NCBI RefSeq assembly: GCF_022848905.1
Contig: NZ_JAFIRA010000026.1
Span: 1 to 48,882, forward strand
DNA: 48,882 nucleotides
Direction: 5' to 3'
DNA from: Thermostichus vulcanus str. 'Rupite'
Lineage (GTDB): Bacteria; Cyanobacteriota; Cyanobacteriia; Thermostichales; Thermostichaceae
Position 1 is the stretch's first letter. Every line of letters begins with the position of its first letter. Positions 48,508 to 48,882 of the stretch are shown piece after piece. The position numbers were made by a program, and so were the translations under genes. The notes beneath the pieces are model-generated. The model saw only the letters and a list, made by a program, of their open reading frames with translations, was not told the DNA's origin and searched no databases.

Positions 48508-48615
48508 ATGGAAACAAACTACTTGGGCCTTCTGGCCACGATCTTGGCGATTTTGGTGCCCGCTATTTTCTTGGTAATCCTGTATGTGCAAACCTCTAGC
48601 AAGTCCAGCGACTGA
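48508..48615 (+). CDS. psbM: Photosystem II protein PsbM
   Basis: A 35-residue single-helix subunit at the PSII dimer interface. [17 protein letters not shown] is followed by [18 protein letters not shown], matching PsbM, especially LVPxxFLxILYVQT. It follows the ferredoxin gene on the same strand. The 8 bp at its stop codon (ACTGATGC) recur 50 bp downstream within a direct repeat. Confidence 0.95.
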
Positions 48616-48621
48616 TGCCTT

Positions 48622-48661
48622 TTATCTAGGTCTAGTTATCCTAGTTATCTAGGTCTAGTTA
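48622..48661. repeat. Direct repeat downstream of psbM
   Basis: The 17-bp unit TTATCTAGGTCTAGTTA occurs at 48622-48638 and 48645-48661, a 23-bp period, with part of it (CCTAGTTA) also between. Flanking ACTGATGC copies (48611, 48661) suggest a local duplication. Confidence 0.8.
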
Positions 48662-48707: not shown

Positions 48708-48744
48708 AAAAGGGATCCCTTAACTCAGGATAGGGATCCCTTTT
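48708..48744. terminator. Bidirectional terminator-like hairpin made of two GGGATCCC
   Basis: A perfect 13-bp stem (AAAAGGGATCCCT at 48708-48720, AGGGATCCCTTTT at 48732-48744) with an 11-nt loop, about 90 bp after psbM. The U-run is only the four Ts of the stem, so termination may be partial. It would work on both strands. Confidence 0.7.
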
Positions 48745-48756
48745 GACTGTGTGGGT

Positions 48757-48882
48757 TTGACACTCCCCCGGTTAGAAACCGGGGGATTCTCCCTTCTAGC
48801 CCCTTGCAACCTTAGACTGCAAGGTATTCATGGAGTTCAGGGGATTGCCAACTACCCCATCCCCTGAGCCGACCCTACCTAT
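48757..48882 (-). mobile_element. Probable right end of an IS200/IS605-type (TnpB) element, cut by the window edge
   Basis: Read on the minus strand, this stretch holds three hairpins and then the tetranucleotide TCAA. The hairpins are TCAGGGGAT/ATCCCCTGA near 48839-48869, CCTTGCA/TGCAAGG near 48802-48824, and the tight CCCCCGGTT-AGA-AACCGGGGG at 48765-48785. GAATCCCCCGG...CCGGGGGAGTGTCAA is what I recall for right ends of IS605-type elements, where TCAA is the cleavage site and the preceding RNA forms the omega RNA. The tnpB gene would lie to the right on the minus strand, outside the window, so this is not proven. Confidence 0.5.

What the first reader, a model, noticed from the sequence alone, without database searches (positions are those of the whole stretch)
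48757..48882. TnpB-type element end with a chance guide next to psbM
Three hairpins and a TCAA boundary on the minus strand resemble an IS605-family right end and omega-RNA scaffold. If so, the guide would be host sequence just left of 48757, which leads into the GGGATCCC terminator stem. That palindrome is everywhere in this genome, so the guide could match many places.
Basis: partly seen in the sequence, partly recalled or inferred. Interest (0 to 1): 0.6.

Follow-up and report, generated by a model that had tools for sequence, protein, structure and literature searches.

The report
TnpB transposon end beside psbM
The last 126 bases of this cyanobacterial contig are the right-hand end of a jumping gene that has spread to 40 or more places in the genome and encodes a TnpB-type nuclease with its own guide RNA; it is a well-supported new member of a known family, not a strange new device, and its guide does not match many places.

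Summary
Window 48757-48882 (minus strand) is the right end (RE) of an IS200/IS605-type element cut off by the contig end. It holds the last 28 codons of tnpB, the stop, and a TCAA boundary. The RE occurs in at least 40 places in the genome. Every complete copy read out carries an intact tnpB of about 400 aa, is preceded by TTAC (28/28 checked) and ends in TCAA. One copy also has a Y1 tnpA; two others carry tnpA remnants; the rest lack it. Five insertions have gapless empty sites in relatives. The RE and tnpB 3' end form an omegaRNA scaffold with strong covariation across 23 cyanobacterial sequences, including the pseudoknot that ISDra2 omegaRNA uses. So the 'TnpB right end and omegaRNA' reading is supported.

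The 'promiscuous guide' reading is not. The guide is ACCCACACAGTCAAAA; GGGATCCC starts only at guide base 17. No other TTAC site matches its first 12 bases with two or fewer mismatches.

Most notable side feature: this TnpB keeps the RuvC D-E-D triad but has lost the zinc-ribbon cysteines, as have most of its closest relatives. It is a new member of a known kind.

The parts
48757..48882 (-). right end (RE) of an IS200/IS605-type tnpB element, truncated by the contig end
   Evidence: at least 40 genomic copies; shared TCAA boundary then unrelated flank
48796..48882 (-). 3' end of tnpB: last 28 codons (IGRVGSGDGVVGNPLNSMNTLQSKVARG) and TAG stop
   Evidence: same sequence closes the 403-411 aa TnpB ORF in other copies
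48757..48795 (-). non-coding part of RE, ending GTGTCAA
   Evidence: GTGTCAA invariant in the 23-sequence alignment
48764..48786 (-). omegaRNA terminal stem (arms 48786-48778 and 48772-48764)
   Evidence: 7 of 9 pairs with two-sided changes, 91% of cells paired (coordinates)
48802..48824 (-). omegaRNA variable hairpin (arms 48824-48816 and 48810-48802)
   Evidence: all 9 pairs with two-sided changes, 79% of cells of the 8-pair helix paired; alignment less certain here
48789..48835 (-). omegaRNA stem CUCC/GGAG enclosing the variable hairpin (48835-48832 with 48792-48789)
   Evidence: 98% of cells paired, two pairs with two-sided changes
48840..48858 (-). omegaRNA hairpin GGGG..UUGRCA..CCCC (arms 48858-48853, 48845-48840)
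   Evidence: four GC pairs kept almost everywhere, two-sided changes at 3 pairs
48758..48850 (-). pseudoknot: loop 48850-48846 with 3' terminal UGUCA 48762-48758
   Evidence: 100% of cells paired in 23 sequences, one-sided compatible changes at 3 pairs; same 3' positions (-6 to -2) as the ISDra2 pseudoknot (PMC10097598)
48873..48879 (-). 3' arm of a fourth omegaRNA hairpin (loop UGUAAUG); its 5' arm lies off the contig
   Evidence: 6 of 7 pairs with two-sided changes, 91% of cells paired
48741..48756 (-). predicted 16-nt guide, host DNA: ACCCACACAGTCAAAA
   Evidence: bases immediately 3' of TCAA; guide length taken from ISDra2 (PMC8612924, PMC10097598)
48708..48744 (.). host inverted repeat AAAAGGGATCCC/GGGATCCCTTTT, probable psbM terminator, not part of the element
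   Evidence: read directly from sequence; present at the psbM locus of relative G003 without the element
48508..48615 (+). psbM, neighbouring host gene
   Evidence: ORF read in sequence and conserved in genus relatives

Best explanation
The feature is the right end of a 1.3-kb, mostly tnpB-only IS200/IS605-family element inserted downstream of psbM. TnpA, supplied in trans by a copy that still has it, recognises the hairpin ends, excises the element as single-stranded DNA between TTAC and TCAA, and inserts it 3' of another TTAC. TnpB binds an RNA read from the 3' end of tnpB through the RE into the flank. The 16 or so host bases after TCAA become the guide and TTAC serves as the target-adjacent motif. 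After excision the rejoined site (TTAC + guide) is cut by TnpB and repaired from the sister copy, so the element is kept. Shown here: element identity, ends, TTAC/TCAA sites, empty sites, intact tnpB in other copies, omegaRNA covariation, guide position and uniqueness. Inferred from ISDra2: RNA processing, cleavage, trans-mobilisation and retention.
For: At least 40 RE copies and at least 40 LE copies. 30 full-length tnpB reading frames, none with a stop, and none in five congeners. Pfam PF07282 and PF01385 over cut-off, PF01797 for the TnpA of the full copy. Sequence match to solved TnpB/Cas12f chains. TTAC immediately 5' of 28/28 complete copies. Gapless empty sites for five insertions in one to four congeners each. 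One copy with tnpA+tnpB, 1768 bp, and two copies with tnpA remnants. omegaRNA covariation and pseudoknot. The same GTGTCAA end in relatives at 44-74% TnpB identity. tnpB pN/pS 0.12 over 435 pairs. Guide uniqueness.
Against: The window copy is cut off at 126 bases, so its own tnpB body and left end are not seen. No expression or cleavage data. This TnpB lacks the usual C4 zinc ribbon, so nuclease activity is not assured. One of the 30 copies has GVDQG for GVDRG. No Rfam family matches the RNA. Low pN/pS may reflect source lineages and conversion between copies; singletons alone give only about 0.37 of the neutral non/syn ratio.
Confidence: 0.9

Rival explanations
1. A structured transcription terminator or regulatory 3' UTR repeated after many genes, unrelated to a transposon.
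For: Strong hairpins at the 3' side of psbM; the genome is rich in GGGATCCC palindromes.
Against: The repeats carry an in-frame tnpB end, a paired left end at 1.3-1.8 kb, a TTAC target and empty sites in relatives. No terminator-like site was called here.
Confidence: 0.02
2. A dead element end: the tnpB system is inactive (zinc ribbon lost, tnpA gone in nearly all copies) and the copies are remnants.
For: Zinc-ribbon cysteines lost. tnpA intact in only one copy seen and decayed in two. Some sequence divergence between copies (median dS 0.18).
Against: 30/30 tnpB frames open, all length differences multiples of three, pN/pS 0.12. RuvC D-E-D invariant among nine family members. The family is absent from congeners, so it arrived or spread after the split. 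omegaRNA structure maintained.
Confidence: 0.12
3. A promiscuous guide: because the flank leads into the HIP-like GGGATCCC stem, this copy targets many genomic sites.
For: GGGATCCC occurs 4959 times and lies just beyond the guide.
Against: GGGATCCC occupies guide bases 17-24, outside a 16-nt guide. No TTAC site with two or fewer mismatches in the first 12 bases, and the total is no higher than the control word.
Confidence: 0.02

Closest known systems
ISDra2 of Deinococcus radiodurans (IS200/IS605; TnpB and reRNA/omegaRNA; PMC8612924, PMC10097598)
   Same: tnpB 3' end and RE give the RNA; guide is the flank after the RE; 5' target motif doubles as TAM; D-E-D RuvC site; pseudoknot pairing bases -6 to -2 with an upstream loop (about -94 to -90 here, -106 to -102 in ISDra2).
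   Different: TAM/target TTAC here, TTGAT in ISDra2; mostly tnpA-less copies in high number; zinc-ribbon cysteines missing. ISDra2 was not aligned directly; the relation is seen through PDB matches to TnpB/Cas12f chains.
IS608 (Helicobacter pylori), by my own knowledge
   Same: TTAC left cleavage tetranucleotide and TCAA right end as I recall them; tnpA and tnpB arrangement in the full copy.
   Different: Not compared by sequence here; most copies here lack tnpA.
IS1341-type tnpB-only elements (described in PMC3627910)
   Same: single tnpB gene, no terminal inverted repeats, no target duplication; proposed there to be possible tnpA-deleted derivatives.
   Different: Here the deletion series is visible in one genome: one intact tnpA+tnpB copy, two with tnpA remnants, many without.
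Planktothrix and other cyanobacterial relatives (L145-L156, L187-L198)
   Same: 44-74% TnpB identity, same GTGTCAA end in nearly all and the same omegaRNA fold.
   Different: Planktothrix (L145) and G170 (L192) relatives keep CSTCG of the zinc ribbon; the others in the alignment do not.

Membership tests
IS200/IS605 insertion sequence | Y1 HUH transposase TnpA in the full-length element | tested here: met
   one copy (C2:58.1-59.9 kb, L009) has PF01797 at 113 bits divergent from tnpB; the window copy itself cannot be seen
IS200/IS605 insertion sequence | insertion 3' of a fixed short target with no target duplication | tested here: met
   TTAC 28/28; five gapless empty sites
IS200/IS605 insertion sequence | subterminal hairpins at LE and RE | tested here: met
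   CCCCCGGTTTCTAACCGGGGG at both ends
IS200/IS605 insertion sequence | single-stranded excision and circle intermediate | not testable with these tools
   needs biochemistry
TnpB RNA-guided nuclease | RuvC D-E-D catalytic residues | tested here: met
   D177, E260, D342 of P0001 invariant in nine family members; 30/30 own copies keep MEDLS and DADWN, and the RuvC-I Asp (29 GVDRG, 1 GVDQG)
TnpB RNA-guided nuclease | C4 zinc ribbon (OrfB_Zn_ribbon/TNB) | tested here: not met
   the domain aligns to PF07282 above cut-off but the zinc cysteines are replaced: TSKTDHRTG...LFTGQDGYCC. Most closest relatives share the loss and share the omegaRNA. I therefore do not claim a canonical TnpB; I call it a zinc-less TnpB-family protein that by D-E-D site and RNA works like one
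TnpB omegaRNA (reRNA) | RNA from tnpB 3' end plus RE with pseudoknot next to the guide | tested here: met
   covariation and pseudoknot; expression not tested
TnpB omegaRNA (reRNA) | guide-directed, TAM-dependent cleavage | not testable with these tools
   needs cleavage assay

The most novel reading that the evidence does not exclude
A cyanobacterial clade of TnpB nucleases has shed the C4 zinc ribbon yet stays catalytically intact and under selection, and has driven a burst of tnpA-less elements (at least 40 copies of one family) that depend on TnpB and inter-copy recombination for their retention. That would make the role of the zinc ribbon, and the selfish-retention model of TnpB, testable in one genome.
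Probability: 0.3. Interest if true: 0.55.

Novelty: new member of a known kind. Interest (0 to 1): 0.33.

Why it matters
It turns a contig-end oddity into a defined TnpB system: known ends, known target motif, a covariation-supported omegaRNA, and 28 distinct natural guides in one genome. The mix of one tnpA+tnpB copy, two tnpA-decayed copies and many tnpB-only copies gives a natural setting to test whether TnpB helps elements persist. The zinc-less but otherwise intact TnpB departs from what was described as a strictly conserved motif (PMC3627910).

Tried and rejected
(1) Guide search used a guide one base off (I dropped the first A after TCAA); it was repeated correctly, and only that one counts. 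(2) Rfam search: nothing at gathering score, weak chance hits only. (3) The long own-sequence stem CAGGGGAT/ATCCCCTG, which dominates the single-sequence fold, is not kept in relatives; the conserved alternative is the GGGG/CCCC hairpin with the pseudoknot. (4) Looking for the left half of the psbM copy: none of the contig-end left ends matched the gene beyond psbM in G003. The matching left flank sits in front of another, complete copy on C2, and the joined flanks align to the G003 psbM locus (70%, gapped). I read this as a rearrangement between copies, or an assembly crossing; not settled.

Full report
What was checked. The window is one whole contig (C26) of a 3.7-Mb cyanobacterial draft genome. 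Its last 126 bases, 48757-48882, recur in at least 40 places. Many other contigs also start or end after about 124-128 bases of the same sequence (contig lengths). That is what a de Bruijn assembler leaves at a long repeat (inference). So the truncation at 48882 is an assembly effect.

What it is. In complete copies the sequence is the 3' end of a 1.3-kb element (mostly 1303-1361 bp) with one gene. The protein, about 400 aa, hits PF07282 and PF01385 above their cut-offs and TnpB/Cas12f chains in the PDB. The window holds its last 28 codons and stop (48796-48882, minus strand). Left boundary: TTAC|GAAAAGCAGCG. Right boundary: GTGTCAA|flank. TTAC precedes 28 of 28 complete copies, while bases further out and the first bases of the right flank show no fixed motif. 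One copy, on C2, is 1768 bp and also carries a divergent Y1 TnpA with PF01797 at 113 bits. Copies L010 and L035 keep tnpA remnants. The rest lack tnpA.

Insertion evidence. None of five congeners has this TnpB family. Joining left flank plus TTAC to right flank gave gapless matches across the junction for five insertions in congeners: L157, L165, L172, L177 and L186. At psbM, relative G003 has the gene and the same GGGATCCC inverted repeat without the element. The left flank that fits the psbM site lies before a different copy on C2. The joined sequence aligns to the G003 locus at 70% with gaps, which points to recombination between copies or an assembly crossing.

The RNA. I aligned 23 distinct right ends from this genome and from relatives at 44-74% TnpB identity. 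RNAalifold and pair counts support a terminal stem, a variable hairpin enclosed by CUCC/GGAG, a GGGG/CCCC hairpin, a fourth hairpin with loop UGUAAUG that straddles the contig end, and a pseudoknot joining the UUGRCA loop to the 3' terminal UGUCA. 88.6% of cells pair (71.1% in shuffles) and 153 cells have two-sided changes (54 in shuffles); no shuffle reached either value, and sliding the partners destroys the signal. ISDra2 omegaRNA makes its pseudoknot with the same 3' positions, -6 to -2 (PMC10097598). Rfam has no matching family. Part of the tnpB 3' coding signal overlaps the RNA, so some of the conservation is shared with the protein; two-sided changes are the part that speaks for RNA. 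The structure was partly read off these same sequences, so the shuffle and slide controls lean in its favour; the size of the gap is what convinces me.

The guide. By ISDra2 rules (16 nt after the RE; PMC8612924), the guide is ACCCACACAGTCAAAA (48756 down to 48741). GGGATCCC begins at guide base 17. But TTAC plus the first 12 guide bases with up to three mismatches gave 17 sites against 20 for the control word, and none kept TTAC with two or fewer guide mismatches apart from the locus itself, where TCAA replaces TTAC. The earlier one search used a guide shifted by one base and is discarded. The four A of guide bases 13-16 belong to the host inverted repeat, so in this copy the guide end might be partly sequestered in the terminator hairpin (inference, untested).

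Is tnpB alive? 30 full-length frames, none with a stop. Pooled pN/pS is 0.12, median dS 0.18. Singletons: 18 silent, 18 replacing, against 9.4 and 25.5 expected (1.1 stops expected, none seen). So recent mutations also show constraint, though weaker. Informative sites show all four combinations in 37% of pairs within 100 bases and about 60-80% further apart, so copies recombine and shared history inflates the pairwise figures. RuvC D-E-D is invariant in the family alignment. The C4 zinc ribbon is not: TSKTDHRTG...GYCC here and in most close relatives, while Planktothrix and G170 keep CSTCG. A 2013 survey called the C4 finger strictly conserved (PMC3627910); I did not find a paper describing this loss, but the library searched is partial.

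Verdict. The promiscuous-guide idea is not supported. It is a new member of a known kind, with a zinc-less TnpB as the point worth a specialist's look.

Noticed in passing
L157-L186 and relatives (alignment A2): TnpB of this family keeps D-E-D but lacks the zinc-ribbon cysteines; some relatives (Planktothrix, G170) keep CSTCG.
   Followed up: partly
G000:C2:58.1-59.9 kb (L009), L010, L035: Deletion series of tnpA: one intact copy, two with remnants, the rest tnpB-only. L035 sits just after a tRNA-like 3' end (GGTTCGAATCC).
   Followed up: partly
L157-L186 tnpB: Extensive mosaicism among copies by the four-gamete test, including a hybrid omegaRNA hairpin in L174.
   Followed up: partly
L177, L183, L185 within the omegaRNA region: A 27-base insertion (about CTCGTGCTCTGCACGGCACGGAGTGCT, itself partly palindromic) between two omegaRNA stems, in frame with tnpB.
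   Followed up: no
G000:C47:19808-20167 and C2:169.7 kb: The gene that follows psbM in G003 (a VOC-type gene, my reading) is broken up here: most on C47 next to another TnpB-type element, its last about 55 bp on C2 before an element copy.
   Followed up: partly
whole genome: 61 matches to PF07282, from several TnpB families, many with good zinc-ribbon scores.
   Followed up: no
48624-48661: Short direct repeats (ATCTAGGTCTAGTTA...) between psbM and its terminator.
   Followed up: no
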